Assembly (NCBI GenBank): GCA_038852285.1
Contig: JAWCKG010000007.1
Span: forward strand, 1 to 64,000
DNA from: Candidatus Bathyarchaeia archaeon
GTDB lineage: Archaea; Thermoproteota; Bathyarchaeia; 40CM-2-53-6; DTGE01
Direction: 5' to 3'
Length of the DNA: 64,000 bases
In this document: positions 38,936-54,106 of the stretch, in pieces
Position numbering within the stretch: the first letter of the stretch is position 1
How the letters are laid out: every line of letters begins with the position of its first letter
Program-made: the position numbers and the translations under genes
The notes under the pieces: model-generated
Seen by the model: only the letters and a program-made list of their open reading frames with translations
What the model was told of the DNA's origin: nothing
Database searches by the model: none

Positions 38936-40405
38936 ATGCCCCGCCCATCCCTCCTATGCCACGAATGCCGTAAAACATACAACCTAGAAGGAGAAGACTA
39001 CGCCTGCGTCAGCTGCGGTCAACCTTTACTCATCACCTACGACCCCGAAGATTTAAAGGAAGCGTTCGATCGAAGACGACCCCTAGAACCGGAATATGGT
39101 GTTTGGAGGTTTCGGCGAACACTACCCTTCCCAACACATGTCGAGCCAACCTCACTAGGTGAGGGAGACACGTACCTTACTCGATGTGAAAGACTGGAGC
39201 GGCTCTTGGGCTTAAAAGCCCTTTACATAAAAAACGAGTCAACAAACCCAACAGGCTCCTTCATCGACAGGGGCTCAACGATCCTTGTTACCCATGCGAA
39301 GCAGAAACGTCGTTCAACGATTGTGTTCGCTTCAACCGGCAACCTAGGATCCTCCCTGGCCGCTTACGCCGCCAAGGCGGGGATTAAATGCCGCATCTAC
39401 ATACCGTACAGAGTCGACCTGGGAAAACTGTATCAGATGATCGCGTATGGAGCTGAGGTGAAGCCAGTGAAAAGTATAAATGAAGCCTTAGAAAAAATAC
39501 CGGGAGGACGATCAGAACTCGATTACATGGTCACGAAAAACAATCCCTACCCCTTAGAAGGATATAAAACCATCTTCTACGAAGTCGTGGAACAGCTGAA
39601 GAATAGTCCTCCAGACAGGGTAATCGTGCCCATGGGATCCGGGGGGCTCATCACGGCCCTGTGGAAAGGGATGGTTGAAATGGAGGAGGCAGGCCACCTG
39701 AGTGGGAAACCCATGTTGACCGGAGTACAAGAAAACTTATGCGACCCCATCGTTAAAGCGTATCAAGGCTTAGAGCCTTTAAGGCAACCTGCTGAGGAAG
39801 CACCCCTAGCCCTCGACCTATACGTTTCCCAGCCCACCTATGTTAGGACGGCTTTAAAAGCGATCAAGGAGTCAAAGGGAACGGCCACCTCGATCTCGGA
39901 CAAGGACATCGTAGAGGCGGCCAGCCTAGTGGCTAGAACCGAGGGGATCTTCGCGGAGTCAGCCGCCGCATCCACCATAGCTGGGTTGCGAAAGCTGTTG
40001 GAGGAAGGGTTGATCGAGAGATCTGAAACCGTGGTTTGCGTGGTCACCGGTGAGGGGTTAAAGGACCCTTCGATGGCGATGAGGATTGTTAAGAAGGAAA
40101 GGACCTTGAGCAAAATGATCTTGAGGATGAACAGTAAGGTGTCGAGGTTCGGCGAAACAAAGGTCGCCATCCTAAGCGTTCTCAACCGTGAAAACCTTCA
40201 TGGTTACGGTATCTGGGGGGAGTTGAAGAAACGGTTTAAAATCAGGATCACGCCGTCCGGGGTTTACCAACATTTAACCGAACTGGAGATGGCCGGTATG
40301 CTGAAAAAATGTAGAGTTGAAAGGTTAGAGGGGAAGCCTGAAAGAATCTATTACACTTTAACGGAGAAGGGGAAGAAGGCCCTCATAGAGTTAACACGGC
40401 CGTGA
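38936..40405 (+). CDS. Threonine-synthase-like protein without PLP lysine, fused to PadR-like wHTH
   Basis: 489 residues. An N-terminal zinc-ribbon (CHECRKTY and CVSCGQPL) and a fold-type II PLP domain follow threonine synthase closely: TNPTGSFIDRGST, STGNLGSSLAAYAAKAG and VPMGSGGLITALWKG. The Schiff-base lysine of GSFKDR is isoleucine here (I110, codon ATC), so PLP cannot be held covalently and normal catalysis is unlikely. Residues about 405-489 are a PadR-like winged helix: ILSVLNRENLHGYGIWGELKK, ITPSGVYQHLTELEMAG and RIYYTLTEKGKKAL. It is divergent from an ECF S component. I read it as a ligand-sensing pseudoenzyme repressor; a moonlighting enzyme is the alternative. Confidence 0.85.
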   Translation: MPRPSLLCHECRKTYNLEGEDYACVSCGQPLLITYDPEDLKEAFDRRRPLEPEYGVWRFRRTLPFPTHVEPTSLGEGDTYLTRCERLERLLGLKALYIKNESTNPTGSFIDRGSTILVTHAKQKRRSTIVFASTGNLGSSLAAYAAKAGIKCRIYIPYRVDLGKLYQMIAYGAEVKPVKSINEALEKIPGGRSELDYMVTKNNPYPLEGYKTIFYEVVEQLKNSPPDRVIVPMGSGGLITALWKGMVEMEEAGHLSGKPMLTGVQENLCDPIVKAYQGLEPLRQPAEEAPLALDLYVSQPTYVRTALKAIKESKGTATSISDKDIVEAASLVARTEGIFAESAAASTIAGLRKLLEEGLIERSETVVCVVTGEGLKDPSMAMRIVKKERTLSKMILRMNSKVSRFGETKVAILSVLNRENLHGYGIWGELKKRFKIRITPSGVYQHLTELEMAGMLKKCRVERLEGKPERIYYTLTEKGKKALIELTRP

Positions 40406-40430: not shown

Positions 40431-41384
40431 TTAACCGGAGGTAAACTGGTAGGATTTAACCTTACCCTTATCGAGGGTGACGATAACTCCTCTAAGTAAT
40501 CCTTCGGAATACTCTGAGCCGGGGTTGAGGCATATGGTTTTTCCGATTTTCGCAACCCCTCTGGATTCGTGAACATGGCCGTGAAGTCCCAGCATTGGCT
40601 GATATCTCTCTATGGCATTCCTCACGGATCTGCTTCCCACATTCTCCAACACGACTTCACCCGCTTGAGTCGTCACGACTTTTGGAGGGGTTACTGAGGT
40701 GTCGAGCTTCGGAGCCACGTCCAATCCTGAGCCGTAAGGCGGCGCATGGAGGTTAAATATGGTTTTGCGGACGTCTCTAACCGTTGAGGCTAGCTCGTTA
40801 ATTCTCTCGCCCAGATCCTCGTCCGGCACATCTCGAGGACATTTCCAAGGCGTCATGTTCACTTGACTGAGGCTGATCATTTCCACATCGCCGTTTAAGC
40901 TCACAGCCTCGCCGTCGGGATCGATGATAGCCTGAGAGGAGCGTAAAACCTTATCCACCGAGTAGCTATCGTCGTTTCCCCCGGTGACGAAAAACTTGAC
41001 GTTTAACCCTTTCAACCTCTCTTCAGCCATCTTAACCCACTCCTTAACCCTCTGCAAAATCAGCTGGTCGAGCATTTCTCTCAACTTTTCAGGGTTGGCA
41101 TCCAACTTCCTTTTCCCTTCTTCATCCACATGGAAAAAATATCCACCCGTATCCCTGATTTGCTGCTCCAAAGACTTTAACTCCTCTTCGCTTCTCAAAA
41201 CCCATTCATCACCCATGAATCGGCATCTAAACGCATCGCCACGCCGAACAATCGGCACTACGAACTTACCTGTGATGTCTCCTCCCAGAATCAGCACGTC
41301 CACTTTATAGTATTTAGGGGCGTTCAGGAATTTCTTAAAGCAGATTTCCGATCCATGTATATCGGTAGCGAAGAATATGCGCAT
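40431..41384 (-). CDS. Calcineurin-like metallophosphoesterase (paralogue A)
   Basis: 317 residues. Metal-site motifs are complete: D8-x-H10 (ATDIHGSE), GGD36 (LGGDITGK), GGNDD (FFVTGGNDDSYS), NLHAPPYGSG and LGLHGHVHESRG. This is the phosphodiesterase/phosphatase fold with two metals. An insert of about 60 residues between GD and GND, mostly helical, and a C-terminal LNPGSEYSEG-like tail are shared with two paralogues in the window. The gene is last in the APC-NTase-MPE operon (10-base gap). Substrate unknown: cyclic nucleotides, nucleotidylated protein or another diester are candidates. Confidence 0.9.
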   Translation of the reverse strand: MRIFFATDIHGSEICFKKFLNAPKYYKVDVLILGGDITGKFVVPIVRRGDAFRCRFMGDEWVLRSEEELKSLEQQIRDTGGYFFHVDEEGKRKLDANPEKLREMLDQLILQRVKEWVKMAEERLKGLNVKFFVTGGNDDSYSVDKVLRSSQAIIDPDGEAVSLNGDVEMISLSQVNMTPWKCPRDVPDEDLGERINELASTVRDVRKTIFNLHAPPYGSGLDVAPKLDTSVTPPKVVTTQAGEVVLENVGSRSVRNAIERYQPMLGLHGHVHESRGVAKIGKTICLNPGSEYSEGLLRGVIVTLDKGKVKSYQFTSG

Positions 41385-41394
41385 AAACCCACCT

Positions 41395-42144
41395 TCACGT
41401 TGAAACGTCGCTAACCTCAGAATACCATTTAACCTTAGCCCCTATTCTCTGCCTCATCTTCCATTTAAGGGATTTCGGCTCAGCCTTCACGCGGGAAACC
41501 AGCTCTCTTATCCTCGAGAACACCGTCCCCTTATCCCTAGCTGGAACGTCATATCCCTCCAGGAAGTGCTCAATCTTCCTTAGGTTCGAAGTAAAGGTGT
41601 GGTAAAACCCCCAGTCATCCGATAAAAGCTTGGAAACGTAGTTTACGTTCACCTTCTCAACGTCGTCGCCGCCTAATGGATGCTCCAGCAACAAGGCGAT
41701 GGCGTCCACTATGTCTTTCTCAGCGATCTTCACTATCTGCATTTTTTCCAGCAACATGTCCGCGACGCTGATCGTCGGATAATCCGCGGTGAGCCTTTCT
41801 CGCAAGTCGATGGTATGCGACATCTCCAGCCTGTCGAAGAACACGTCAGCCTTCAACCCGTTTGAGTGGAAAAGGTATCGACGGCCTCCGTGAACCCAGT
41901 TAAACCGCTCATTAGGCTCGAAGCCAAACCGACGCATCAGACCAGTAATCTTATCCCTATACTTACCTAAAGTGATTAAATCGATGTCCGTTACAGGTCT
42001 TTTAACCTTTTCAAAAAAAGATAGGGTGTTTGGGCAGTGGATCCTGAAGGCACATGCCCCCAGGATTCTCACCTCCACGTCGCTCTTCTGGGCCTCCTCG
42101 ACGATCGAGGCCGCAGTTGAACAGATCGCTGGTAGCTTCTTCAC
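41395..42144 (-). CDS. Nucleotidyltransferase-fold protein (paralogue A)
   Basis: 249 residues. The N-terminal part has the nucleotidyltransferase-fold signature in LGACAFRIHCP and VTDIDLITLGKYRDKI (D53, D55 chelate metal) and a third acid in LKADVFFDRLEMSHTIDLRERL. The C-terminal half begins TISVADMLLEKMQIV and is helical. This resembles AbiEii/antibiotic-type nucleotidyltransferases more than tRNA or sugar enzymes. It starts GTG 42144, 13 bases after the APC permease and 10 before the phosphoesterase, so all three are co-translated. Role unknown; modification of a protein or small molecule is a reasonable guess. Confidence 0.75.
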   Translation of the reverse strand: MKKLPAICSTAASIVEEAQKSDVEVRILGACAFRIHCPNTLSFFEKVKRPVTDIDLITLGKYRDKITGLMRRFGFEPNERFNWVHGGRRYLFHSNGLKADVFFDRLEMSHTIDLRERLTADYPTISVADMLLEKMQIVKIAEKDIVDAIALLLEHPLGGDDVEKVNVNYVSKLLSDDWGFYHTFTSNLRKIEHFLEGYDVPARDKGTVFSRIRELVSRVKAEPKSLKWKMRQRIGAKVKWYSEVSDVST

Positions 42145-42157
42145 CGCTCCTTCCCGC

Positions 42158-43756
42158 TTACTCCGGTGGAATCTCCTTAAAGGCCAAGCCTATATCTATT
42201 CCTTGCCTACGCCTGACAAACCATACGATGGCGAAGTACACCGCCACTATCAAATATAGGAGGGCGACGATGGTCACCCCGATTAGTGAAACGCCTCCTA
42301 GCGCTGGAAACGTGGCGTAAAGGCCTATCGCGAACAGCGTGGGTATCGTTCCTAGAATGCCCAGTATGGTGATAAGCGGTATTCTCCCAACCATATACTT
42401 CGCTATGGGAGAACGTTGGAAAACCCCTTTCATGGTGTAGGGGAAGAAGATCCCGGCGACGCTAGTTCCAAGGATGATCGTCAGATACGAATAGGTGTTC
42501 GCGACGAAGGCCCTCGCTATGGTGAACTCAGGGTTGATGATGGCTAAAGCCCCCCATATCAAGGTTCCAACGGTTAAAGCCGTCAAAGCCACCAAGGGCG
42601 CTCTCGTCCTCGGATGCACGTAGGTCACCGCTGAAGGCAGTAGGCGGTCGAAGGCGTGGGCGAACATATACTTGGTGGCGTTCGCGAGGTTTAGGACGTT
42701 GTAGAATATGATTTGACAGGAGTGGCTTAGAATGAATATCCAACACGCTATCAGCATCATCGAGCCTCCTAAGCCGAGGGCGGCTAACGCTGGATACCAG
42801 GGTAAGTGGGGTGGAACCATCAGCTTACCAGTTATGAAAAGCCATGAAATAGATTTCCAGAACTCGTCTCCGATGGCCCTCGGAACCAACGCGAAGATCG
42901 ATGTAACGATCGCTGTCGTTATCAGAAGAGGCCCCACAAACGCCAGCGTGGTCCTTCGTACTTTTTCAACCTCCTTTACCTCCCCTATGTGAGGAATGGC
43001 GCTTTGACACCACAACATGATTGAGTATGGGATGCCCATCAACGCTATTGTTTGAGTCCAACTGAACTCCGTGACATGCGTGTAGCCTGCTTCTTTAGCG
43101 GCTTGAATAATGCCCTGATAGGCGCCTGCGCCGAAAAACTGGTCGAATAAACGCATGAATTGAGGCTGGGTGATGGACGCTAAGGCGATTAAGAGCAATA
43201 TGTGGCCTACGGCTAAGATCGCTGTGAACACCGTTACAAGCCTCCCCATCAGCCTCATGCCGGTAGCCACGATCACAGCTGGCAAAACCACTATCACCAC
43301 CATCACAACCGCCACCCCGATGTTTGTTGAAAGCCAGGCGGCGAACCCCTTAAGCCCAGCCAGCCAAAACGCCAAGGGAACGTATATGCCCGCCCAAGCC
43401 CTCGCGTTAGCGTTCGCCCAACCCATCAAGAAGAATACCCCAGCCACGAATGTTAAGGCGAATCCGAACAGCGGATGTATAATCCTAGAAACATACACAT
43501 AGTCTCCGCCCGCCCTTGGGGTGCTGGACGCCAAGAACGCGTAGCACAGCATGGTGGGAACCAGCAGTAGGCCTCCTATCAACGCGGCCAGGGCAGCGTT
43601 GCCTCCTGGAAACAACGCTACCAGGAAGTATTGCAGCCATGTAGCCGCGCTGAAAGCGCTGTTAGCCATGAAATTGTAGTAGAATAACACCCACGGAGAC
43701 CATTCACGCCTCAACCCGCTGGCAGCCCGAGGATAAACCATTCTCTCGGAAACCAT
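42158..43756 (-). CDS. APC-family amino acid permease (paralogue A)
   Basis: 532 residues, about 12 transmembrane helices. STPRAGGDYVYVSRIIHPLFGF and the region GEVKEVEKVRRTT are characteristic of the APC superfamily. N-terminal cytosolic residues PRAASGLRREWSPW and a C-terminal tail GIDIGLAFKEIPPE are conserved with the two paralogues, at 44930 and 51202. The gene opens the operon with the nucleotidyltransferase and phosphoesterase. Substrate unknown. Confidence 0.9.
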   Translation of the reverse strand: MVSERMVYPRAASGLRREWSPWVLFYYNFMANSAFSAATWLQYFLVALFPGGNAALAALIGGLLLVPTMLCYAFLASSTPRAGGDYVYVSRIIHPLFGFALTFVAGVFFLMGWANANARAWAGIYVPLAFWLAGLKGFAAWLSTNIGVAVVMVVIVVLPAVIVATGMRLMGRLVTVFTAILAVGHILLLIALASITQPQFMRLFDQFFGAGAYQGIIQAAKEAGYTHVTEFSWTQTIALMGIPYSIMLWCQSAIPHIGEVKEVEKVRRTTLAFVGPLLITTAIVTSIFALVPRAIGDEFWKSISWLFITGKLMVPPHLPWYPALAALGLGGSMMLIACWIFILSHSCQIIFYNVLNLANATKYMFAHAFDRLLPSAVTYVHPRTRAPLVALTALTVGTLIWGALAIINPEFTIARAFVANTYSYLTIILGTSVAGIFFPYTMKGVFQRSPIAKYMVGRIPLITILGILGTIPTLFAIGLYATFPALGGVSLIGVTIVALLYLIVAVYFAIVWFVRRRQGIDIGLAFKEIPPE

Positions 43757-43956
43757 AGCTATTTCCCGTTAACGGGCTTGCGATGTCATTATATTTTAAA
43801 CTTTCGGGGGATACCGGTCAAAACAAGGTTGGCAAGATGTCGGTTATCGGTTAAGCTTAGATGCAGATTGATCGAGAACCAAGCATCACAACGCCTGATG
43901 AAAAATGGGGGCTCAAGGGTGAAGTAAATGAAAAGAGGGGTTTTAAGGGTGTGGTT

Positions 43957-44910
43957 TCACCCTGTGGTGAAGAGGAAGTCTCGGATTCTGTCTTCTGAAA
44001 CCTGTATTAACGCTCCTTTTAATACGCCTTCCTGATACTCGCTTCCAGGGTTTAGGCAGAGGGTTCTGCCGATTCTCGCGAAGCCCCTCGACTCGTGGAT
44101 GTGTCCATGCAAACCTAGAAGGGGTTGTTGGTTGGCGAGCGATTCCCTGACGGCTTGGCTTCCCACAGGCTTTGTCTTAACTCCCTTTCCAGGCTCGAGT
44201 TTAGGCCTCAGCTGCTCGTCCAGCTCTGGGGCTTCGTCGAGGCCTGTCCCATAAGGTGGGACGTGGATGTTGTATATGCTTAACTTTGGGTTCTGTACTT
44301 CCACCGCTAAGCGGTTGAGTTTATCCCTTAACGTTTCCTCGGTTACGTCCCTTGGACACATCCACGGCGTGATATTCGAGTATCCTAGGCTTAGCATTTC
44401 ATGTCGGCCTTTGACCATGACGATTTTCTCGTTTGGATTGACGATTCTCTCAGCTTTCTCCAATACTTTGTCTATGGCGGGGATGTCGTCGTTGCCCGGG
44501 GAGATGTAGCATTCTATGTCCGTGCTGGAAAGTCTTTCATCAGCCATTTCAACCCATCTCCGCAGGTTGGCGGTGATTATGGATTCGAAGAGGGCTAGGC
44601 GTTTTTCCCCGTTTTCCTGAAAGATTTTATACTCTTCTTCGTCGGTCACCATCGGGTATGATCCTATCGAACGTATCTTCTCCTCAAGCTCCCTTAAAGC
44701 CTTCTCGCCTTGTGCGTGGACGGTTTCGCCCAGTAAACGGCATCGATACCCGTTATTTGACTCGAATATGGGAGTTACCGTTTTCCCTGTGATGTCTCCG
44801 CCCATGATGATGACGTCAGCCTTGTAAAGTTTACCCGCGTTGAGGAATTTCTTAAAGCATGTTTCCGAGCCGTGGACGTCGGTGGCGTAGTAAAGCCTAA
44901 CCCCCTTCAC
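43957..44910 (-). CDS. Calcineurin-like metallophosphoesterase (paralogue B)
   Basis: 317 residues, same length and motifs as the copy at 40431: ATDVHGSETCFKKFLNAGKLYKA, GGDITGKTV, ISPGNDDIPA, NIHVPPYGTGLDEAPELDE and LGLHGHIHESRG. The match continues through the insert domain and the C-terminal tail, so the two are close paralogues. Starts at GTG 44910, 19 bases after the stop of the APC permease upstream, giving a two-gene operon. The nucleotidyltransferase that accompanies copies A and C is not between them; copy B lies 2.7 kb upstream, with the formamidase. Confidence 0.9.
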   Translation of the reverse strand: MKGVRLYYATDVHGSETCFKKFLNAGKLYKADVIIMGGDITGKTVTPIFESNNGYRCRLLGETVHAQGEKALRELEEKIRSIGSYPMVTDEEEYKIFQENGEKRLALFESIITANLRRWVEMADERLSSTDIECYISPGNDDIPAIDKVLEKAERIVNPNEKIVMVKGRHEMLSLGYSNITPWMCPRDVTEETLRDKLNRLAVEVQNPKLSIYNIHVPPYGTGLDEAPELDEQLRPKLEPGKGVKTKPVGSQAVRESLANQQPLLGLHGHIHESRGFARIGRTLCLNPGSEYQEGVLKGALIQVSEDRIRDFLFTTG

Positions 44911-44929
44911 GCCTCTTCCACACCCTTTT

Positions 44930-46552
44930 TTACTCCGGCGGGATCTCCTTGAAAGTTAACTCTAACGGTATCCCAACCCGGCGGTGGTATAAGGAGGACG
45001 CCGCGTATATGACGAGGGCTAAGGCGAACAGCGCGAAGGTAAAGACGAGGATGATGGGGTCTATAGTGCCAACGAGGGCTGGCGACATGCTGCCGTAGGC
45101 CAGCCAAGCAGAAACGATGATCGTCAAAACCCCTAGGATTCCAAGCACTGGCACGGGACCGATCTTCGCCCTGACGATGGAAGGCGATTTATCCCATATG
45201 TCCTTTCTCCGGAGTGGGAACACTATGCCTGATATGGCGGCGATGCTCTGGGCGATCATCCACCCGAACACGGCGTAGGCGAAGTAGTTGAGCAGTGGTG
45301 TCCAAAGCCACGCTGCTTGGAGGATGATGGCTATGACGGTGACGAAGATCAACGCCATATACGGGGAGTTGTATCGCGAGTCAACCTTTGAGAGGGCGGT
45401 TGGCACAACCCTGTCAAAGGACCAGGCGAAGACAAGACGCACCGTTATCGCCACGTAGGTGAGGATGGCTCCCAGGATCATGGCGGACCAGCAGATCATC
45501 ACGAAGTTGTACATGGCTTTGCTGCCGGCGGCGTATTGGAACAGCAGCATGAAGAATGGGCCGTCGGAGAAGGGCAGTTTATAGGCGGGATCTCCTACCG
45601 CCCATAGGTAGGAGAGGGCTCCGATGAGCGTTCCACCCATTCCATGATATGTGGCTTGGTAGGCGAGCCATGTGATGAACCCGAACACGACGATGGATCC
45701 TATGATGGCGATGAGCTGGGATTTCTGAACCTCCTTGATTTCACCGGACGCGTAGACTGAGGAGTTGAACCCTATGAAGTTTATGTAGGTGAAGACTAAG
45801 CCGAGCATGGTGGCGGGGAGCAGAAACTTGCCTGGGAAACCTGCGGATTCAGCCGCTCGGATTGCCTCCTGTGGGTCCAGCCCTGTCTGAGCCTTGAGGG
45901 CGGTGGTGAAGGTTTCTGGGCCGACGCGGAGCAAAGTTATGGTGTACGCGATTAACCCGATGAAGACTAGGCTGAACAGGATCCACAGTGTGGTGGTGGT
46001 CGCCTTTGAACCCCTGGAAACGATGGCGGCGAAGATTAGGTATATGATGACGGCCGCGAGGAAGGTGAATTCCGTTGAGGCGACGGTTGAGGCGGCTGCG
46101 CTGTACCCGTTGAACTCCAGCATAGGGGCTAACGCGTACTGGGTGAGCCATGGAACATATGCTCCTGCGACGCTGAGCAAGACCATGAAGATGAAGAAGT
46201 TGATCATGAAGCCGATGGATGGGTGGAGCACCCGGCTGACCCAGACGTAGTCGCCTCCCGACCTAGGCATGGCAGCGGAGTAAACCGCGTAGAATAACCC
46301 TACGATGACGCTGATCGGAATGGCGAGCAAGGCCGTTGTTGGGAGGTGAACCCCAGGGTAGATGGCTGAAGCCCAAATCCCATATACGAAAACGGCTGTA
46401 GGCGCCATGAACATCACGTTTAAAATCAAGGCGTCCCACGCGGAAATGTTCCTGACAAGCCCTGAAGATTTCCTAACCAATATTTTATTAGCCATTTCGG
46501 CCACAAAACCATATTTAACATGAAGCTTAGAATTTAAATCCTTCCATCCCAT
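44930..46552 (-). CDS. APC-family amino acid permease (paralogue B)
   Basis: 540 residues, 12-helix APC permease with VRKSSGLVRNISAWDALIL at the N terminus, SAAMPRSGGDYVWVSRVLHP and YASGEIKEVQKSQL. It resembles the copies at 42158 and 51202 along its length, and ends GIPLELTFKEIPPE. It lies just upstream of metallophosphoesterase B. The gap of 156 bases to the formamidase gene upstream may contain its promoter. Confidence 0.9.
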   Translation of the reverse strand: MGWKDLNSKLHVKYGFVAEMANKILVRKSSGLVRNISAWDALILNVMFMAPTAVFVYGIWASAIYPGVHLPTTALLAIPISVIVGLFYAVYSAAMPRSGGDYVWVSRVLHPSIGFMINFFIFMVLLSVAGAYVPWLTQYALAPMLEFNGYSAAASTVASTEFTFLAAVIIYLIFAAIVSRGSKATTTTLWILFSLVFIGLIAYTITLLRVGPETFTTALKAQTGLDPQEAIRAAESAGFPGKFLLPATMLGLVFTYINFIGFNSSVYASGEIKEVQKSQLIAIIGSIVVFGFITWLAYQATYHGMGGTLIGALSYLWAVGDPAYKLPFSDGPFFMLLFQYAAGSKAMYNFVMICWSAMILGAILTYVAITVRLVFAWSFDRVVPTALSKVDSRYNSPYMALIFVTVIAIILQAAWLWTPLLNYFAYAVFGWMIAQSIAAISGIVFPLRRKDIWDKSPSIVRAKIGPVPVLGILGVLTIIVSAWLAYGSMSPALVGTIDPIILVFTFALFALALVIYAASSLYHRRVGIPLELTFKEIPPE

Positions 46553-46708
46553 CCTCTCTATACTTTCTCGGAACCGGCGTCGACAGCCAGTAAAGGCAAT
46601 CGCCGCTTACGTCTTCGCTAAATAAATCACGTTAAATGTTGGTTTTTTCATCGGTGTGTGAGGCTGGAGTAAATTTCAACCTAACCCTGAACCAGTCTGC
46701 TAATCCTC

Positions 46709-47677
46709 TTATTCTAAATGTTTTTTCGAGATCTTCGCGACAACCGTGTACAAGGGGTCCACTATCTGAGCGATCCTAGCCTTGCCGGCTATGCTTAGCA
46801 GCATGTACGCGTCGTAGGTGGAGAACCCGTAGTCGCTGCGCATCCAATCTATGAGCTCTCTGAAGGCAAGCCTCGCCGCGTCTTCCAATGGCCTGGCGCT
46901 ACCCACTGCCATAATCTCCTCCTGAGATTCTATCCTAGGCCACTCTATCGTCCTCCCCTTTAGGATGGTGAACCTTAAGGTTATGGTGGCTGGGACCTCT
47001 ACGGCTGTTCCACATATTTCTCCATCTCCCTGCGCTGCGTGAACGTCTCCTGCCGCGAACAAGGCCCCTTTAACTCCTATGGGGAGGTATAGGGTGTTTC
47101 CGGGGCAGATGTCGGCTACATCCATGTTTCCGCCATGCTTGTGGGGCGTTATGGTGGATATGGATTCTGTGGGAGGCGATACTCCTATGGTTCCGATGAA
47201 GGGCTTTAAGGGTAGCTGTACCTCTTTGCCGTGATCTGTCTTATAGTATATTGCGTTGTTCCTGATGTTGGTGAATTTGGTGGTGGCGGGCATTTTGGTT
47301 AGCCATCCTTCTAGGGCTCCGAATCCTGGCACGATCGTTGTGACCCCGAGGTCTGGGACTTGGATGTCGATTACCTCCACCTTTAAAACGTCGCCTTTCT
47401 CAGCTCCTTTGATGTAGATGGGCCCTGTCACTGGGTTATCGTATATGGGTGTTCCTGAGCCCAGTATCTTGTCCAGCTCCTTGCCGGGCCTTACGGCGTC
47501 GGCGAAGCAGTCGTAGGTTTCTATCTTCACCGTTTCTCCAGGGGAAACTTTCATGACGGGTTTATTATGTGGGCTGAAGGTGCAGTCCACCGTTTCTGAA
47601 AGGTCCTTCCTTTTATGGACGAGCTTCAAATCCACCGCCTTTTTCAGCGGGATCTTTCCTCTACGTCCCTCCACCAC
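46709..47677 (-). CDS. Formamidase/acetamidase
   Basis: 322 residues of the FmdA/AmdA family, which releases ammonia from formamide or acetamide. The N-terminal HKPVMKVSPGETVKIETYDCFAD-like region, GPIYIKGAEKGDVLKVEVIDI and CPGNTLYLPIGVKGALFAAGDVHAAQGDGE are hallmark segments. It starts with GTG 47677, inside the 3' end of the nucleotidyltransferase gene (34-base overlap), so these two are co-translated. It is the only catabolic enzyme in the three-module region and hints that at least one of the permeases takes up amides or amide-yielding amino acids. Confidence 0.9.
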   Translation of the reverse strand: MVEGRRGKIPLKKAVDLKLVHKRKDLSETVDCTFSPHNKPVMKVSPGETVKIETYDCFADAVRPGKELDKILGSGTPIYDNPVTGPIYIKGAEKGDVLKVEVIDIQVPDLGVTTIVPGFGALEGWLTKMPATTKFTNIRNNAIYYKTDHGKEVQLPLKPFIGTIGVSPPTESISTITPHKHGGNMDVADICPGNTLYLPIGVKGALFAAGDVHAAQGDGEICGTAVEVPATITLRFTILKGRTIEWPRIESQEEIMAVGSARPLEDAARLAFRELIDWMRSDYGFSTYDAYMLLSIAGKARIAQIVDPLYTVVAKISKKHLE

Positions 47678-48456
47678 TTCTTCTTAGATCCCTGCTTGTT
47701 TCTTTTCTCCCAATTCTTGGTTTTCGGCTGCAACTCGATCAGGCTTTGAAGCTTCTCCATCCTCTCGGAAACGACGCTTTGAACCTCCTTCCCGACCATG
47801 CTCTCCTTCACATATTTTTCAAGATATTTCAGCGTTTTCTGAAGGTTAATGGAGGCGTCGTACCAGAAACCCCAGTCTTCAGACAGAAGCGTCGCGACGT
47901 ACTTCCCGTTAATGATGTTTTCACCCTCCTCTTCTCCCACAATGTTAGCTGCGAAGAGGAGTATGATGTCCTTGATGTCTTTCTCATTGATTTCGTGGAT
48001 TTGAAGCTTTTCCAACAGAAGGTCTGTCGGTGAGGCTGTTAAGGCGTTGAGGTTTAATCGACCCTCCTTCGGGTTTGAGCCAAACTCCACGGTGTGGCTG
48101 AACTCAAGCTTGTCGAAGAACACGTCCACACCATATTTCTTCTCCGGGTGGTGGAACATCATCCTTGAGCTTCCATGCAGGAGGAGCGCGTATTGATCCA
48201 CCTGGTATCCTAACTCTTCGAGGAGTTTCCTCACCTCGTTTCTCTGGCGGCTGTAGGCCGCTAAGTCGATGTCCGTGAACTTTCTCTCTGAGTTAAGCCT
48301 GTTCAGCTTATGGAACAAGTCTTCATGGCGCCACGCGTTGAGCCTGATGCCCACGGCCCCCAGTACTCTCAGGTATAAGCCTCTTTCAGCGGCTTCTTTC
48401 ACTAAGGTTACGGCGTCCTCCAAGATGATTTCGTCTTCTCTACTCAACTCAACCAC
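47644..48456 (-). CDS. Nucleotidyltransferase-fold protein (paralogue B)
   Basis: 270 residues. Same layout as copies A and C: LGAVGIRLNAW, FTDIDLAAYSRQRNEVRKLLEELGYQ and KYGVDVFFDKLEFSHTVEF, then SPTDLLLEKLQIHEINEKDI. Metal acids are D, D and D as in active enzymes. It lies upstream of, and overlaps, the formamidase, not the phosphoesterase, unlike copy A. Starts at GTG 48456. Confidence 0.75.
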   Translation of the reverse strand: MVELSREDEIILEDAVTLVKEAAERGLYLRVLGAVGIRLNAWRHEDLFHKLNRLNSERKFTDIDLAAYSRQRNEVRKLLEELGYQVDQYALLLHGSSRMMFHHPEKKYGVDVFFDKLEFSHTVEFGSNPKEGRLNLNALTASPTDLLLEKLQIHEINEKDIKDIILLFAANIVGEEEGENIINGKYVATLLSEDWGFWYDASINLQKTLKYLEKYVKESMVGKEVQSVVSERMEKLQSLIELQPKTKNWEKRNKQGSKKKWWRDVEERSR

Positions 48457-48949
48457 TGGTGAAAGGGTAATTCGTAACCTTTCTTTCTTCCATGTCGAAC
48501 ATTAGCCCATTTGGATTTTGGTCGCATGATCTTCCTAGGTCCAGTTGGCAAGTCCTATACGGATCTTTCTCATATTCTTGGAGCATTTAATCTCTTATCG
48601 AGGTTATTAAGGGTTAATGTTTTCAACCCCTTTTCTCAGATTTATTTTCAACATTTACCCTTACTGTATTTCTTCACCGGTGTCGAACCTGAACTTTCCT
48701 ATACACTACATTTTCAGTTATTGAAGGACCAGCTTTTCACACTTAATGGAGGGCTCTTCAACCTTGATTCTAAACATGTTAAAGGGTTTAGTCGTGCGCC
48801 CCTTTTACCGCTGCCGAGGATTTATAACTTTTCAAGAGATGTCGGTTTAGGTTGAAGATCGCTTACGTCGCTCTGATCTGAACCAGACCTCTTGACCAGT
48901 TACCTTTAAGAACTTGAGAAGGGATGAGCGTGTCTGGGAGGACTCTTCC
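48457..48949. other. Gap without a supported gene
   Basis: AT-rich 490 bases. One plus-strand frame of 114 codons opens at TTG 48511 (Phe/Leu-rich) but shows no family resemblance, no good ribosome-binding site and no shared neighbour. Promoter elements for the flanking genes probably lie here. Confidence 0.4.
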
Positions 48950-50068
48950 TCATGGTATGATCTCACAGCTGTTGTATCGTGGATAGTCTAGGCTTTTCGC
49001 CGAGATCCTTCCACTTGACAGTAAACGCCTAATGGTTGGAAGATGGGTTTCCAGGCTAGAGATGAGGCTTTTCACGGTTTCGCATACTATTTCAAACCCC
49101 TTTAGCCCCCAGAGCTTCGTCGCGTTCGCGTACAGGCATCTCCCACCGCACAGCCAATACTCTTCGCATTGAGGACAGGGGTCGGATACATGGACTTTAT
49201 CCCTTAAGCTAAGCGGATCCGTGGTCCATATATCTCCCAGATAAAAGTTTTTTATGCCAGACATAACTGGGCAGGGCGTGATCTTTCCATCCTGCTGTAC
49301 GTTAAACATGATCCAACCAGCCCCGCATCTAAGCTTACACGCTTCACCAGTGAGCATCGAGTTCACCAACCCGACGAACGGATAAATTCTATAAACCACG
49401 CCCCGCTGTTTCATCCATCTAACCCACTCCTTGACCAAGCGGTTAACCCCTAGATTGTAGCTGTTCACCCAGCGCGTAAACTTCTCCTCTACAAAGTCGT
49501 TGGACCCGAACTGGGCGTCCAGCTGCCAATGAACCGATTTAAAAGGAAAATCATCGTTGAAAAGCAACCACTTAACCTGCTCGTATATGTTAGTTTCAAA
49601 GCTTACAGTCATGCGGGCGATCAACTCGCCTTCGAACCCCATTCTAAGAACGTGCTTCAGATTTCTGATCACCTTACGGTAGGTTCCAGCCCCCCTATAG
49701 TAGTCTGTGACGGATTCGTCCCCGTCGAGGGACACTAGGATTGTGTCAAGCCTTTTCAAGTAAGACGGTTCCAGTTGATCCAGCAAAGTGCCGTTGGTTT
49801 GCAGAATAAACTTTTTCGCCTTAACCTTATCCATGATTTCCCCCATTTTCTCAGGCATCAGTGTTGGCTCACCGCCGTAGAAAACGATTGTTGGAGCTGG
49901 ATCCTTCGTTAGAAAACGATTCAAATCTTCCACGGAATAGCTTATTGAGCTGGGGACCTCATAGTCCAGGCTGTAGTTCCCTAGACTTCCATCATCCTTA
50001 AGGCATTTACCGTAGCAGTAGCTACACTTCATATTGCAGTTAGAGGTGAGGGTTAGATAGTAGTGCAT
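48950..50068 (-). CDS. Radical SAM/SPASM protein, putative peptide-modifying type
   Basis: 372 residues. The radical SAM cluster motif C11-x3-C15-x2-C18 (TSNCNMKCSYCYGKC) is at the N terminus, followed by FYGGEPTL (SAM contact) and LVSLDGDES. The C-terminal SPASM-like region has CKLRCGAGW, ITPCPVMSG and CPQCEEYWLCGGRC, enough cysteines for one or two auxiliary clusters. This arrangement resembles archaeal peptide-modifying enzymes of the AF1577 kind, which act on ribosomal peptides or proteins. No short precursor peptide is visible next to it. It is divergent from phosphoesterase C by 132 bases and inside the three-module region. Confidence 0.85.
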   Translation of the reverse strand: MHYYLTLTSNCNMKCSYCYGKCLKDDGSLGNYSLDYEVPSSISYSVEDLNRFLTKDPAPTIVFYGGEPTLMPEKMGEIMDKVKAKKFILQTNGTLLDQLEPSYLKRLDTILVSLDGDESVTDYYRGAGTYRKVIRNLKHVLRMGFEGELIARMTVSFETNIYEQVKWLLFNDDFPFKSVHWQLDAQFGSNDFVEEKFTRWVNSYNLGVNRLVKEWVRWMKQRGVVYRIYPFVGLVNSMLTGEACKLRCGAGWIMFNVQQDGKITPCPVMSGIKNFYLGDIWTTDPLSLRDKVHVSDPCPQCEEYWLCGGRCLYANATKLWGLKGFEIVCETVKSLISSLETHLPTIRRLLSSGRISAKSLDYPRYNSCEIIP

Positions 50069-50200
50069 AAAAAATAAGTTTAGTAGTTGTTGATTTAAAA
50101 GTTAACGTGGATTTACCGACAATAGCGAATAGGGAGATTTATGTGGAATATTTAAATACGATGGAAATGGATTAAACGAGGTCAAGGGCGGTATTTAAAT

Positions 50201-51148
50201 TTGATTAAGAGGATCTTTTATGCTACAGACATCCATGGTTCAGAGGTAGTTTTCCGAAAATTCGTGAGCGCTGGCAGATTTTATAAAGCCGATATAGTGA
50301 TTCTTGACGGAGACCTTACTGGAAAAGCCATCGTCCCAATAATCAACAAGGGTGACGGATCTTTTGAAGCTGATGTTTTAGGCGAGAGATACCTTGTTAA
50401 TAGAGACGAGGCTATGGAGCTGGAAAATAGAATAAGGAATTTAGGTTTTTACCCTTTAATTTTAAGCGAGGATGAGCTGGAGGATTTAAGGGGAAGCCCG
50501 AGAAAAGTGGATAAACTCTTTGAAGACATGATGGTCAGAGAAATTAGGAAGTGGGTTTCCCTTATTGAACAGAATTTGAAGAATTCAGGCATTGATTGCT
50601 ACGTTTTGCCTGGGAACGACGACCGATTTGAAATAGATAAAGAGTTAGAGGGTTCTGATTATATCGTTAACCCTGAAGGCAGGGTCGTTGATTTGGATGG
50701 GGTACATGAGATGATAAGCTCGGGGTGGAGTAATCCGACACCATGGAATACGCCTAGAGAGGAAAGCGAGGAGGAACTGGGAAGGAGAATAGAGGCCATG
50801 GCCTCCAAGGTTAAAAATATGGAAAACTGCGTTTTTAACCTTCACTGCCCTCCGTACGACACTGGAATAGACAACGCACCCCAACTGGACGAGAATTTGA
50901 GGCAGGTAGTGAAAGCGGGTGAATTAATCATGGTTCCGGTCGGCAGCAAATCCGTTAGACAGGTCATTGAAAAGTATCAGCCTTTGATAGGCCTCCACGG
51001 CCACATACATGAATCTAAGGGTGCGCGTAAGGTTGGTCGAACGCTATGCGTTAACCCTGGCAGCGAGTATCAACAAGGTACCCTTAAAGGGGTGATAGTG
51101 AATCTCGACGATAAGGGAGTAAAGTCTTTTATGTTTACTTCTGGTTAA
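50201..51148 (+). CDS. Calcineurin-like metallophosphoesterase (paralogue C)
   Basis: 315 residues with the motifs of copies A and B: ATDIHGSEVVFRKFVSAGRFYKA, LDGDLTGKAI, LPGNDDRFEI, NLHCPPYDTGIDNAPQLDE and IGLHGHIHESKG. Starts at TTG 50201. It is more AT-rich than copies A and B. It faces the APC permease copy C (convergent, 53-base gap), so here the module is broken up into separately transcribed genes. Confidence 0.88.
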   Translation: MIKRIFYATDIHGSEVVFRKFVSAGRFYKADIVILDGDLTGKAIVPIINKGDGSFEADVLGERYLVNRDEAMELENRIRNLGFYPLILSEDELEDLRGSPRKVDKLFEDMMVREIRKWVSLIEQNLKNSGIDCYVLPGNDDRFEIDKELEGSDYIVNPEGRVVDLDGVHEMISSGWSNPTPWNTPREESEEELGRRIEAMASKVKNMENCVFNLHCPPYDTGIDNAPQLDENLRQVVKAGELIMVPVGSKSVRQVIEKYQPLIGLHGHIHESKGARKVGRTLCVNPGSEYQQGTLKGVIVNLDDKGVKSFMFTSG

Positions 51149-51201
51149 CTTCGGTGAATGGAAATAAAAAAGATGAGGGGGAGTGAAGCGGCTTAGATTT
51201 A

Positions 51202-52764
51202 TCAGGCTGGAGGGATCTCGCTGTATATTAAATCTAAGTCTATGCCCTGTTTTCTTCTAACGTATTTACTAACATAGTATACGATGAAGGCCCCCCAGAA
51301 GAATACCAGTGAGGCTATGATGAACCATATTCTCTGTAGTATGGCTTGACCCGTTGTGAACTCTGTATATGGGGGAAAAGTGTAGGGCCATGCAGATAGC
51401 CCGTACAGGAGAAGGGCCATGAATATCGTTGAAATAACTCCAGCTATAGTGATGAGGGGTAACTTTCCAATTTCCTTTTGAGCCGGTGAACCTTCATACA
51501 GTTTCCTCCGTCTCCATGGGAAGATTATTCCTGATATCGATGTGAAGAAGTAAGCCATCGTGCAGCTAATAGTGATTCCCGCGACCCACGTTACAAAGGC
51601 TACCCACCACGTGTAGAGGATTAAAGCGATCTCAGACAAGATGAAGATAAATAGTATAGCGTATGTCGGTGCGTTGTATTTTCTACTTACCTCTGAAAGT
51701 TTGTCTGGTAAGATTCTGTCGAAGGACCATGCCATCACAGATCTACTTGTGAACGTGTAAACGAAGATCATCGTGCCGAACGGCCAGAGTATGAATCCAA
51801 GTCCCATTATCCAGATTAAGGATACGTTTGGGGCGCATAGGCTGGCGAACAGGTTATAGGAGGCTGGAACCGGTAGAGGGCTCTTACCAATTAGTTGTAA
51901 GAAGTAAAGGCTTCCTAGGAATTGGTCGCCTAAAACGTATTGCATTCCGTAAGCCATTATTAGGGTTAAAGGAGCAAGTATTGCTAACGACCCCATAATG
52001 GAAAACAGCATGTTTTTCCTCGGGTTTTGAAGTTCACCCCCCGCGTATACATTATTTTGAGTGTATAATACGGTTAATCCTGAGTATCCGATCGCTATCA
52101 GTGATAACCATTTGTCATTCCATCTCTCCAGTATAGGGAAGCCCTCCTGAGCTCCGGCTTCAATCACACCTGTATATGATGTGAGAGCGTTGAATCTGCT
52201 TACGAATACGTCGTGAGGCGTTAACGCGATCACAAATATTGCTATACACACACCGATCATACCGATTATCCACAATATTTTTTGGGCAATCATACTAGGT
52301 CTTAGTCCCCTCAGAACTATCGCTAATATTACGACATTTATGAGGGTGGCTATTATGAAAGTTACTAGGGGCGTAGTAACCCACGTAGCCATGTTAATTA
52401 GCCCAGGATTATTCGTCATTACTCCCAGTGTGGATAAGAAACCAGCCATCCCGATCGTCATAGCCCAGTTACCATAGATGCTAATGAATATACCAGCGCA
52501 CATTATCATCGCGACGTTAGCGGCGAATCCCCAGGCTGGCGTTAAGGTTCTAGAGTTAAATACATAGTCTCCACCTGAGAGTGGGAAAGTGGACCCGAAA
52601 AGGACGTAGACTATGTCTAGGAAAACCGCCGCGATTATCGCCCATATAATTGACCATACCATGTGGGACCCCGGGTAGGTTGAGGGAACAAACAATAATC
52701 CAACCGCGCCGAAAATGAGGTTAGCTAACAGAATATTACCTATTAAAGCGTCCCAACCCGACAT
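51202..52764 (-). CDS. APC-family amino acid permease (paralogue C)
   Basis: At least 520 residues from ATG 52764. Twelve helices with FPLSGGDYVFNSRTLTPAWGF, VYAGGELQNPRKNM and a terminal GIDLDLIYSEIPPA match the copies at 42158 and 44930. Homology continues upstream of the ATG: the frame reads ASERLFVRKASGLVRG before it, like VRKSSGLVRN of copy B, but ends at TGA with no ATG, GTG or TTG in between. Either translation begins at a non-standard codon (ATT, after an AGGTG) or the 5' end has been damaged. Confidence 0.88.
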   Translation of the reverse strand: MSGWDALIGNILLANLIFGAVGLLFVPSTYPGSHMVWSIIWAIIAAVFLDIVYVLFGSTFPLSGGDYVFNSRTLTPAWGFAANVAMIMCAGIFISIYGNWAMTIGMAGFLSTLGVMTNNPGLINMATWVTTPLVTFIIATLINVVILAIVLRGLRPSMIAQKILWIIGMIGVCIAIFVIALTPHDVFVSRFNALTSYTGVIEAGAQEGFPILERWNDKWLSLIAIGYSGLTVLYTQNNVYAGGELQNPRKNMLFSIMGSLAILAPLTLIMAYGMQYVLGDQFLGSLYFLQLIGKSPLPVPASYNLFASLCAPNVSLIWIMGLGFILWPFGTMIFVYTFTSRSVMAWSFDRILPDKLSEVSRKYNAPTYAILFIFILSEIALILYTWWVAFVTWVAGITISCTMAYFFTSISGIIFPWRRRKLYEGSPAQKEIGKLPLITIAGVISTIFMALLLYGLSAWPYTFPPYTEFTTGQAILQRIWFIIASLVFFWGAFIVYYVSKYVRRKQGIDLDLIYSEIPPA

Positions 52765-52809
52765 ACCTCTTACAAGGCCGCTTGCCTTCCTAACAAATAA
52801 TCGCTCGCT

Positions 52810-53300
52810 CGCCGTAGAAATTCACCTATTTTTCTTCAATTAAACACGTAATCTATGTTTATAATATTTAAAATTAACGATCCATAATCTAAGAATCGCG
52901 GGGCCTCAAGCCGTGTAACAGGTTATAAGAAGATTCTTAAGGTAGAACCGATGGAAGACGCATAGCTTATGGTCTATTGTTCTGTCATGTGGTCAGGAGG
53001 GCTGAAGCGCAGTCATGTGAAGCTATACTGAAAGCATCTTAACATTCTTAAATTCAGCCTAGCCCTAACGGAGGCATAAGTCTCAATAGCACTATTTTTA
53101 AAATTTTCTCCATATTCGATCGCTACCCGGAAGTATGTTTAATATCGGTTCAAATTGGAAGCATTGCTTTCTTTGGCTAGGCGAAACTAGACAAGAGCAT
53201 TAGTGGGAAATTATAGGAAGAATCCCAGGAGACTTCGTTCTTTACCTCAAAATTTATAATGTGCAATTTACGTAGCGATGAACAGCTTTAATCTTAAATA
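52810..53300. other. AT-rich gap between permease C and nucleotidyltransferase C
   Basis: About 490 bases with no supported frame. It separates two divergently transcribed genes and probably holds both promoters. Sequence is AT-rich with no obvious repeat or palindrome that I could establish. Confidence 0.4.
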
Positions 53301-53302
53301 AA

Positions 53303-54106
53303 ATGGTCGTCCAATTAGTAAAGAAGCCAGAGCTGGAGGACACAATATTGTCTCTATCCAACTTTGTCGAGGAAGCATGGAGGATTGTTGATGTGGGTAG
53401 AAAAGAGGGAGTGACTTTAAGGGTAATGGGGGCTACCGCCATTAAAATACACTGCCCGACGTTTTCAAGCCTCCAGGAATCTTTAGGTAGAGAAATTTCA
53501 GACGTAGATTTCATGGCGTACAGTTCTCAGAAAGACGAGGTCATGAGGCTGCTTTTAAGGCTTGGATATAACTTTGACAGACGAAGCCTGATGATAATGA
53601 GGTACTTTAATAGGTACATTTTTGAAGACGTAGAAAATAAACGACATGTAGATGTTTTTTTCGACAAACTGGAGATGTGTCATACCATCGATTTTAAAGA
53701 GAGGCTAGAAGTAGATTATCCGACGATTTCATTAGCGGACCTCTTACTAGAAAAGCTTCAAATAATTAAGGTTGCCGAGAAGGATCTTAAAGACTGCATA
53801 GTTCTTCTCAGGGAACATAATGTAGGTGAACATGATGAAGAAACTATTAACATTAAATACATTTCAAATCTATTGTCAAAAGATTGGGGATTCTACTATA
53901 CTGTAAAGATGAATCTAGAGAGAATAAAAAACTTTCTGAACAGCCACCCTACCCTTAAAGCTTCAGATAAATCGAACATCCTCCAAAAAATCAGCTTATT
54001 AGAAACAGAAATCGAAAATGCGCCTAAATCGATTCGATGGAAAATGCGCGCAAAAGTGGGTCCCAAACAAAAATGGTATCGAGAAGTAGAGGAGGTAGAA
54101 CGCTGA
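53303..54106 (+). CDS. Nucleotidyltransferase-fold protein (paralogue C)
   Basis: 267 residues. MGATAIKIHCPTFSSL, ISDVDFMAYSSQKDEVMRLL and DVFFDKLEMCHTIDFKERL carry the same active-site acids as copies A and B, followed by TISLADLLLEKLQIIKVAEKD. The C-terminal half ends KSIRWKMRAKVGPKQKWY, shared with copy A (KSLKWKMRQRIGAKVKWY). ATG 53303. AT-rich relative to copy A. Confidence 0.75.
   Translation: MVVQLVKKPELEDTILSLSNFVEEAWRIVDVGRKEGVTLRVMGATAIKIHCPTFSSLQESLGREISDVDFMAYSSQKDEVMRLLLRLGYNFDRRSLMIMRYFNRYIFEDVENKRHVDVFFDKLEMCHTIDFKERLEVDYPTISLADLLLEKLQIIKVAEKDLKDCIVLLREHNVGEHDEETINIKYISNLLSKDWGFYYTVKMNLERIKNFLNSHPTLKASDKSNILQKISLLETEIENAPKSIRWKMRAKVGPKQKWYREVEEVER

What the first reader, a model, noticed from the sequence alone, without database searches (positions are those of the whole stretch)
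40431..54106. Triplicated permease / nucleotidyltransferase / metallophosphoesterase modules
Seen: three close metallophosphoesterase paralogues (40431, 43957, 50201), three nucleotidyltransferase-fold paralogues (41395, 47644, 53303) and three APC permease paralogues (42158, 44930, 51202) fill about 14 kb. Copy A is a tight operon APC-NTase-MPE with gaps of 13 and 10 bases; copy B has APC-MPE with the NTase displaced next to formamidase; copy C is the same trio, split and AT-rich. All phosphoesterase metal motifs and NTase acids are intact in each copy. Known: APC proteins import amino acids; MPE and NTase enzymes are often opposing writers and erasers. Inferred: reversible nucleotidylation of the permease or a small messenger controls uptake. 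I know of no description of this module.
Basis: partly seen in the sequence, partly recalled or inferred. Interest (0 to 1): 0.9.

Follow-up and report, generated by a model that had tools for sequence, protein, structure and literature searches.

The report
Permease with dedicated nucleotidyltransferase and phosphoesterase
A membrane importer found across archaea and several bacterial phyla almost always comes with the same two enzymes, one of a type that attaches nucleotides and one of a type that cuts phosphate bonds; this points to a widespread and apparently undescribed way of switching nutrient uptake on and off.

Summary
In detail: three metallophosphoesterases (MPE), three nucleotidyltransferase-fold proteins (NTase) and three APC permeases lie at the stated places with catalytic motifs intact. 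It is not a local triplication. AU tests reject A+B+C as one clade in all three families, and a fourth trio lies on another contig. The trio is widespread in archaea and at least five bacterial phyla. In 201 Chloroflexota genomes MPE, NTase and a dedicated APC subfamily occur in 44, 45 and 43 genomes, 42 holding all three (MPE-NTase p=9e-44, inflated by shared ancestry). In 101 archaeal relatives: 23, 23 and 22, with 21 shared. Starting from the permease in Actinomycetota, 37 of 40 loci carry the MPE and 36 the NTase nearby.

Module permeases differ from 31 ordinary APC permeases of relatives on the predicted cytosolic side: R-x-A-[S/T]-G-L-V-R before helix 1 and a K-E-I-P-P-E tail. MPE and APC copy numbers track each other (rho 0.95); one NTase often serves several pairs.

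Best reading: NTase and MPE are writer and eraser that gate the permease, probably by reversible nucleotidylation of the conserved Ser/Thr. The coupling is shown; the chemistry is inferred.

The parts
40431..41384 (-). MPE_A: class III metallophosphoesterase, 317 aa, GNDD variant, module copy A
   Evidence: AF2 pLDDT 96.1; Foldseek: aq_1956, TT1561, MPPED2, Rv0805
41395..42144 (-). NTase_A: Pol-beta-fold nucleotidyltransferase, 249 aa (weak PF14907), acids D53, D55, D100
   Evidence: AF2 pLDDT 95.8; Foldseek: ANT(2'')-Ia, MenT1, LnuA
42158..43756 (-). APC_A: module-type APC permease, 532 aa; N-tail RAASGLRR, C-tail FKEIPPE
43957..44910 (-). MPE_B
   Evidence: nearest G001 (L097) and Bathyarchaeota (L008, L006) in the tree
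44930..46552 (-). APC_B: module-type APC permease; RKSSGLVR and FKEIPPE tails; 82% identical to the copy in relative G001 (L097)
46709..47677 (-). acetamidase/formamidase-family protein (PF03069) inside operon B; same order NTase-FmdA-APC-MPE in Chloroflexota L007 and L017; seen in 8 loci
47644..48456 (-). NTase_B, first gene of operon B, overlaps the formamidase gene by 34 bases
50201..51148 (+). MPE_C (AT-rich copy)
51202..52764 (-). APC_C: module-type APC permease. The frame stays open upstream to about 52809-52821, so the true start, with the N-tail motif, may lie upstream of the ATG at 52764
   Evidence: (match runs to 52809)
53303..54106 (+). NTase_C (G+C 38.9%); sister of the NTase of the fourth trio on contig C12 (L094)
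   Evidence: (SH-aLRT 96)

Best explanation
The three genes form one functional unit: a dedicated APC-superfamily importer with its own writer (Pol-beta-type nucleotidyltransferase) and eraser (class III metallophosphoesterase). Most likely mechanism: the NTase transfers a nucleotide (AMP or another NMP) to the near-invariant Ser/Thr of the permease's cytosolic N-terminal motif R-x-A-[S/T]-G-L-V-R, just before helix 1, which locks the inner gate. The MPE cleaves the phosphodiester and frees the permease again. The MPE is the partner matched to each permease, while one NTase can serve several permeases because all carry the same tail. Shown: co-occurrence, adjacency, copy-number coupling, co-divergence of MPE with APC, intact active sites, and a subfamily-specific Ser/Thr motif not conserved in ordinary APCs of related genomes. 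Inferred: that the NTase acts on the permease, which residue it uses, which nucleotide, that the MPE reverses it, and the direction of control. I put about 0.85 on 'the two enzymes control this permease' and the figure given here on this specific chemistry.
For: Genome-level coupling. 101 archaeal relatives: MPE 23, NTase 23, APC 22 genomes, 21 with all three, Fisher p 2e-17 to 2e-21. 201 Chloroflexota: 44, 45, 43, with 42 triple. Most exceptions dissolve on inspection: G006 has a divergent NTase beside its MPE; G282 has an APC fragment next to its MPE and G285's MPE sits on a 4 kb contig; the only MPE-less APC genome, G222, has a permease without the motif or tail. All 19 genomes checked through loci, most chosen because the fetched locus showed no NTase, hold an NTase. 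Permease-first sampling in Actinomycetota: MPE in 37/40, NTase in 36/40, both in 34/40 loci, often as an NTase-MPE-APC operon. In 72,556 plasmids the MPE and the APC subfamily hit the same two records. MPE/APC copy number rho 0.95 over 42 genomes; some genomes have 4 permeases, 3 MPEs and 1 NTase, e.g. G233, G297. MPE-APC co-divergence p=0.0005 within multi-module genomes. Module APCs: R8 90/90, S/T11 89/90, G12 90/90, D361 90/90, against 4/31 for R8 and 8/31 for D361 in ordinary APCs, where S/T at position 11 is not conserved. S/T kept in all 41 further module permeases with an N-terminus. The transported-substrate region of helix 1 is variable, which fits control independent of substrate. 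Precedents: an MNT-family NTase AMPylates a tyrosine of its partner protein HepT (PMC7641770). In LeuT an N-tail Arg and Asp369 form the inner gate (PMC4447972); R8 and D361 here could be the counterpart (inference).
Against: No direct evidence of modification. NTase and APC trees agree only weakly (global rho 0.08; within-genome p 0.07), which is what a shared writer would give but also what independence would give. The closest solved NTase folds modify small molecules (ANT(2'')-Ia, LnuA) or tRNA (MenT1, CCA-adding enzymes), not membrane proteins, and TM-scores are low (about 0.4). The Ser/Thr could simply cap helix 1. No NTase-permease or MPE-permease gene fusion was seen. Solo MPEs beside unrelated genes exist (L051, L077). 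No MPE that removes protein-bound AMP is known to me.
Confidence: 0.4

Rival explanations
1. Small-messenger model: the NTase makes, and the MPE destroys, a soluble nucleotide signal (cyclic, oligomeric or a nucleotide-metabolite adduct) that binds the conserved cytosolic face of the permease and controls it.
For: One NTase often serves several permeases, natural for a diffusible signal. MPE fold neighbours include the nucleotide phosphodiesterases Rv0805 and MPPED2. c-di-AMP control of KUP-family K+ transporters is reviewed in PMC10710835. Module APCs share several invariant cytosolic residues (R78, R88, D361, C-tail) that could form a site.
Against: Each permease tends to carry its own MPE (rho 0.95), which a global messenger would not need. 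No match of the NTase to messenger synthases in Pfam, NCBIfam or PADLOC.
Confidence: 0.2
2. Metabolic model: the NTase and MPE act on the imported compound or its product (for example nucleotidyl activation or trapping, then hydrolysis), so the trio is a catabolic or salvage pathway rather than a regulator.
For: NTase fold is nearest to small-molecule adenylyltransferases such as ANT(2'')-Ia. Modules sit among enzymes for amines, betaines and amides: dimethylglycine-oxidase-like, MttB, choline-kinase-like, aminotransferase III, formamidase, nitrilase.
Against: Neighbouring enzymes differ from locus to locus and permeases are only about 25% identical with variable helix 1, while NTase and MPE stay alike across phyla. 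One NTase covers several different permeases. It would not explain the permease-specific cytosolic motif.
Confidence: 0.22
3. Assembly or scaffold model: MPE and NTase bind the permease tails and are needed for its folding, stability or membrane targeting, with catalysis secondary.
For: Tight MPE-APC adjacency (median gap 122 bases, 58 of 71 co-directional) and co-divergence.
Against: Catalytic residues of both enzymes are near 100% conserved over archaea and bacteria, which argues for catalysis.
Confidence: 0.1
4. Coincidental clustering or hitch-hiking of three common families.
For: MAG contigs are short and all three folds are common.
Against: Genome-level coupling with p down to 9e-44 (inflated by kinship but repeated in archaea, Chloroflexota and Actinomycetota); MPE-, NTase- and APC-centred sampling agree.
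Confidence: 0.02

Closest known systems
GlnD - GlnK (PII) - AmtB ammonium uptake control
   Same: A nucleotidyltransferase writer with an opposing eraser activity controls a membrane importer through reversible nucleotidylation (uridylylation of GlnK: PMC10710835; GlnD as the enzyme from general knowledge).
   Different: There the target is the PII protein, writer and eraser are one protein with an HD domain (general knowledge), and the transporter is Amt. Here no PII protein is part of the unit and the eraser candidate is a separate calcineurin-like phosphoesterase.
HepT/MntA (HEPN/MNT, type VII toxin-antitoxin)
   Same: A small Pol-beta-fold NTase that AMPylates a partner protein encoded next to it (PMC7641770).
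   Different: No toxin, different NTase subfamily (no match to PF01909 or PF18765), partner is a permease, and a phosphoesterase is added. A true HEPN/MNT pair lies nearby at 56563-57367.
KUP/KimA-type K+ transporters controlled by c-di-AMP
   Same: Transporters of the wider APC superfamily controlled by a nucleotide on the cytosolic side (KUP: PMC10710835; superfamily membership from general knowledge).
   Different: Control is by ligand binding to a fused domain; no dedicated NTase and phosphoesterase travel with the gene.
ANT(2'')-Ia / LnuA / MenT1 nucleotidyltransferases
   Same: Among the nearest solved folds of the NTase.
   Different: They modify antibiotics or tRNA; none is known to me to act with a permease.
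aq_1956, TT1561, MPPED2, Rv0805 metallophosphoesterases
   Same: Nearest solved folds of the MPE, two-metal site.
   Different: The MPE carries a longer insert, GNDD in place of GNH, and is tied to a permease.
Solved APC transporters (PDB 6f34, 5oqt; CAT-family)
   Same: Closest solved sequences to the module permease profile.
   Different: Ordinary APCs lack the conserved R8, S/T11, D361 and the KEIPPE tail (31 generic APCs).

Membership tests
APC superfamily permease (PF13520) | Profile match over the family cut-off across the whole transporter | tested here: met
   45.0, 97.5 and 62.0 bits against cut-off 27
Ordinary amino-acid APC | Generic N-terminal region without the R-x-A-S/T-G motif and without the KEIPPE C-tail | tested here: not met
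   Module APCs form a separate subfamily: generic APCs score at most 61 bits with the module profile and lack the motifs
Calcineurin-like (class III) metallophosphoesterase | Two-metal ligands DxH, GD, GN, H, GHxH and the fold | tested here: met
   Residues 98-100% conserved, Foldseek E 5e-13 to aq_1956; Pfam matches weak
YfcE and other named phosphodiesterase equivalogs | Curated score cut-offs of the named families | tested here: not met
   Best 28.4 bits against 117 (PRK09453), 26.4 against 56 (YfcE)
Pol-beta-fold nucleotidyltransferase | DxD pair, third acid and fold | tested here: met
   D53/D55 100%, position 100 D or E in all; Foldseek prob 1.00 to ANT(2'')-Ia and MenT1, though TM-scores are about 0.4
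PF14907 NTP_transf_5 | Score over Pfam gathering cut-off 31.2 | tested here: not met
   17.4, 24.3 and 18.1 bits: a related but separate family
HEPN/MNT toxin-antitoxin | Adjacent HEPN partner and MNT domain (PF01909, PF18765) | tested here: not met
   No such domain match in the NTase and no HEPN gene as a recurrent neighbour cluster
GlnD/GlnK/AmtB-type control | PII protein as nucleotidylation target and HD-domain uridylyl-removing activity | tested here: not met
   No PII or HD-domain cluster among the recurrent neighbours that were annotated; the analogy is functional only
Reversible protein nucleotidylation system | Covalent NMP on a protein target, removed by the partner | not testable with these tools
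   Needs biochemistry
Known anti-phage defence systems | Match to PADLOC models | tested here: inconclusive
   Only partial hits to candidate models PDC-S10 (MPE) and PDC-S02 (NTase); neighbourhoods are metabolic

The most novel reading that the evidence does not exclude
A whole subfamily of APC importers across archaea and at least five bacterial phyla is switched by direct, reversible nucleotidylation of a conserved Ser/Thr on its cytosolic gate, with a phosphoesterase eraser matched to each permease and a shared nucleotidyltransferase writer. It would be the first transporter family found to be covalently nucleotidylated, and the first calcineurin-type enzyme found to remove protein-bound nucleotides (both 'first' claims rest on my own knowledge and limited literature searches).
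Probability: 0.35. Interest if true: 0.95.

Novelty: categorically new. Interest (0 to 1): 0.85.

Why it matters
APC permeases are among the commonest nutrient importers, and how the activity of bacterial transporters is modulated after synthesis is less understood than their gene control (review PMC10710835). Here an entire permease subfamily is tied to two enzymes whose usual chemistry is opposite, with a named candidate residue, named active-site residues and relatives in named or cultured species (Halobellus limi, Thermomicrobium roseum, Thermogemmatispora aurantia, Mycolicibacterium stellerae). The question 'what do these enzymes do to the permease' becomes directly testable. In the Halobellus record the NTase is annotated only as hypothetical protein, so the link is easy to miss.

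Tried and rejected
Local triplication: rejected by AU tests and by the fourth trio on contig C12. NTase_B 'displaced': rejected, since the order NTase-FmdA-APC-MPE recurs in Chloroflexota.

Chance clustering: rejected. Toxin-antitoxin or defence: no fitting partner or strong model match. A universal fourth component (CBS-domain protein, DeoR regulator, choline-kinase-like, formamidase): each is confined to some lineages. Gene fusions between the parts: the only extensions seen are stop-to-stop N-terminal overhangs.

Apparent exceptions to co-occurrence were followed: G006 has a second NTase subfamily (L114), G282 an APC fragment, G285 truncated contigs, G171 an NTase near a contig end, G222 an APC without the motif. 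G053 (58% complete) has only an MPE fragment; G031 and G035 (68-77% complete) only an NTase.

Literature: no paper in the open-access library links the three families; subscription papers are not covered.
Full report
WHAT IS THERE. Pfam gives AA_permease_2 for the three permeases, and weak calcineurin-type phosphoesterase and weak PF14907 matches for the other two families. On the minus strand the cluster reads NTase_B, formamidase-family gene, APC_B, MPE_B, then 200 bases later APC_A, NTase_A, MPE_A. Copy C follows beyond a radical SAM/SPASM gene, in mixed orientation and at lower G+C (38.9-44.7%). A fourth trio lies on contig C12.

THE PARTS LOOK CATALYTICALLY LIVE. The NTase model (AF2, pLDDT 95.8) has a Pol-beta fold; among the nearest solved folds are ANT(2'')-Ia, MenT1, CCA-adding enzymes and LnuA. 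Over 82 sequences D53, D55, K134, Q136, D144, D147, H110 and W178 are invariant and the third acid is D or E. The MPE model (pLDDT 96.1) is nearest to aq_1956, TT1561 and MPPED2, with Rv0805 further down; its metal-site residues are 98-100% conserved over 106 sequences. Neither family reaches the cut-off of a named NCBIfam model.

THE TRIO IS A UNIT. A genome-contig scan with the MPE gave 80 loci from Bathyarchaeota, Nitrososphaeria, Asgard-type, Thermoplasmata and other archaea, Chloroflexota, Actinomycetota, Spirochaetes, Bacillota and Desulfobacterales. Of 36 MPE loci with 5 kb on both sides, 30 had both partners within 5 kb. This sample is ranked by likeness to the window, so I repeated it on genome sets chosen without regard to the module. 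In 101 archaeal relatives the three families occur in 23, 23 and 22 genomes, 21 shared. In 201 Chloroflexota they occur in 44, 45 and 43, 42 shared. Starting from the permease in 297 Actinomycetota, 38 genomes held it, and of 40 loci fetched 37 had the MPE, 36 the NTase and 34 both. In 72,556 plasmids, MPE and module APC hit exactly the same two records, Halobellus limi and Thermomicrobium roseum. Kinship inflates the p-values, but the pattern recurs in three separate groups and the exceptions were followed one by one. The APC profile was built from linked permeases; ordinary APCs of the relatives score at most 61 bits with it, full-length module members mostly 180 bits or more, so unlinked members should have been seen.

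COPY NUMBER AND HISTORY. MPE and APC numbers go together (rho 0.95); the NTase is sometimes single in genomes with three or four permeases. Tree distances correlate for MPE-NTase (rho 0.40) and MPE-APC (0.40), hardly for NTase-APC (0.08). A stricter test, permuting module labels within multi-module genomes, gives p=0.0005 for MPE-APC, 0.034 for MPE-NTase and 0.07 for NTase-APC. Copies A, B and C are not sisters. Copy B is an old block shared with relative G001, Bathyarchaeota and Wolframiiraptor. The NTases of copy C and of the fourth trio are sisters, so NTases have been duplicated or exchanged between modules inside the genome.

WHAT IS SPECIAL ABOUT THE PERMEASE. Module APCs share a short N-terminal motif F-x-R-x-A-[S/T]-G-L-V-R, usually 6-17 residues from the start and just before helix 1, and a C-terminal tail G-I-D-...-[F/Y]-K-E-I-P-P-E. 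R8, G12, R88 and D361 are 100%, S/T11 is 89 of 90, and 41 of 41 in a further set. Of 31 ordinary APCs of the relatives, only 4 have R8 and 8 have D361, position 11 is not conserved and the tail is missing. Both tails and these loops lie on the cytosolic side in the LeuT fold (established knowledge of the fold). In LeuT an N-tail Arg pairs with Asp369 at the inner gate (PMC4447972); R8 and D361 may be the counterpart, which is inference. The Ser/Thr would then sit inside the gate.

CONTEXT. Neighbours include dimethylglycine-oxidase-like, MttB, choline-kinase-like, aminotransferase III, formamidase, FGGY kinase, mandelate-racemase-like and nitrilase genes, differing by lineage. The transported compounds therefore probably vary, while the two enzymes stay constant. 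This favours control of the permease over a role in one pathway.

MECHANISM. Shown: linked unit, live active sites, permease-specific cytosolic motif, and tighter coupling of MPE than NTase to the permease. Inferred: the NTase nucleotidylates the Ser/Thr and closes the gate, and the MPE removes the nucleotide. Rivals are a soluble nucleotide signal, modification of the imported compound, and a scaffold role. I give 0.4 to the first and about 0.85 to the broader claim that the enzymes control the permease.

KNOWN OR NEW. The nearest working analogy is GlnK-AmtB, where uridylylation of a PII protein controls an importer (PMC10710835). The nearest biochemical precedent for a small NTase modifying its neighbour is MntA on HepT (PMC7641770). 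Neither is the same system. Five literature queries for the combination found nothing relevant in the open-access library; subscription literature was not searched.

LIMITS.

Noticed in passing
window 56563-57367 (-): A true HEPN/MNT pair (PF18765/PF01909 at 56563-56988, PF05168 HEPN at 56966-57367), a likely type VII toxin-antitoxin, about 2.5 kb from copy C. An NTase-domain/HEPN pair also lies near the module on the Thermomicrobium roseum plasmid.
   Followed up: partly
L098:8680-9606 (-), L110:8429-9355 (-), L111:1897-2829 (+), L114:3510-4427 (-): A second, divergent NTase subfamily (GGAAVKIHCRSAN..., 64-74 bits with the NTase profile) beside modules of some relatives; in G006 (L114) it stands in for the usual NTase. 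Its DxD acids are present.
   Followed up: partly
window 43957-48456: In copy B the permease is far more conserved (82% to G001) than its MPE (best 57% to any row) and NTase (best 51%), the reverse of what holds across modules. Unexplained: fast enzyme evolution, swapping or gene conversion.
   Followed up: partly
G005:C7:79275-79886: A decayed NTase pseudogene with six in-frame stops in a relative, on a contig without an MPE.
   Followed up: no
window 48950-50068 (-): Radical SAM/SPASM protein of family TIGR04084 (rSAM_AF0577), 315 bits against cut-off 225, function unknown.
   Followed up: no
window 38936-40405 (+): Threonine-synthase-like PLP enzyme (thrC 212 bits against cut-off 167); from its sequence it seems to carry a C-terminal winged-helix-like segment.
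   Followed up: no
window 38126-38869 (-): ECF-type riboflavin transporter S component (PF07155, 108 bits).
   Followed up: no
window 36022-37941 (-): An ordinary APC permease with a long soluble C-terminal extension, without the module motif, close to the module cluster.
   Followed up: partly
L146:8966-10774 (+): 602-aa protein with two nitrilase-family stretches, directly after APC-MPE on the Thermomicrobium roseum plasmid.
   Followed up: no
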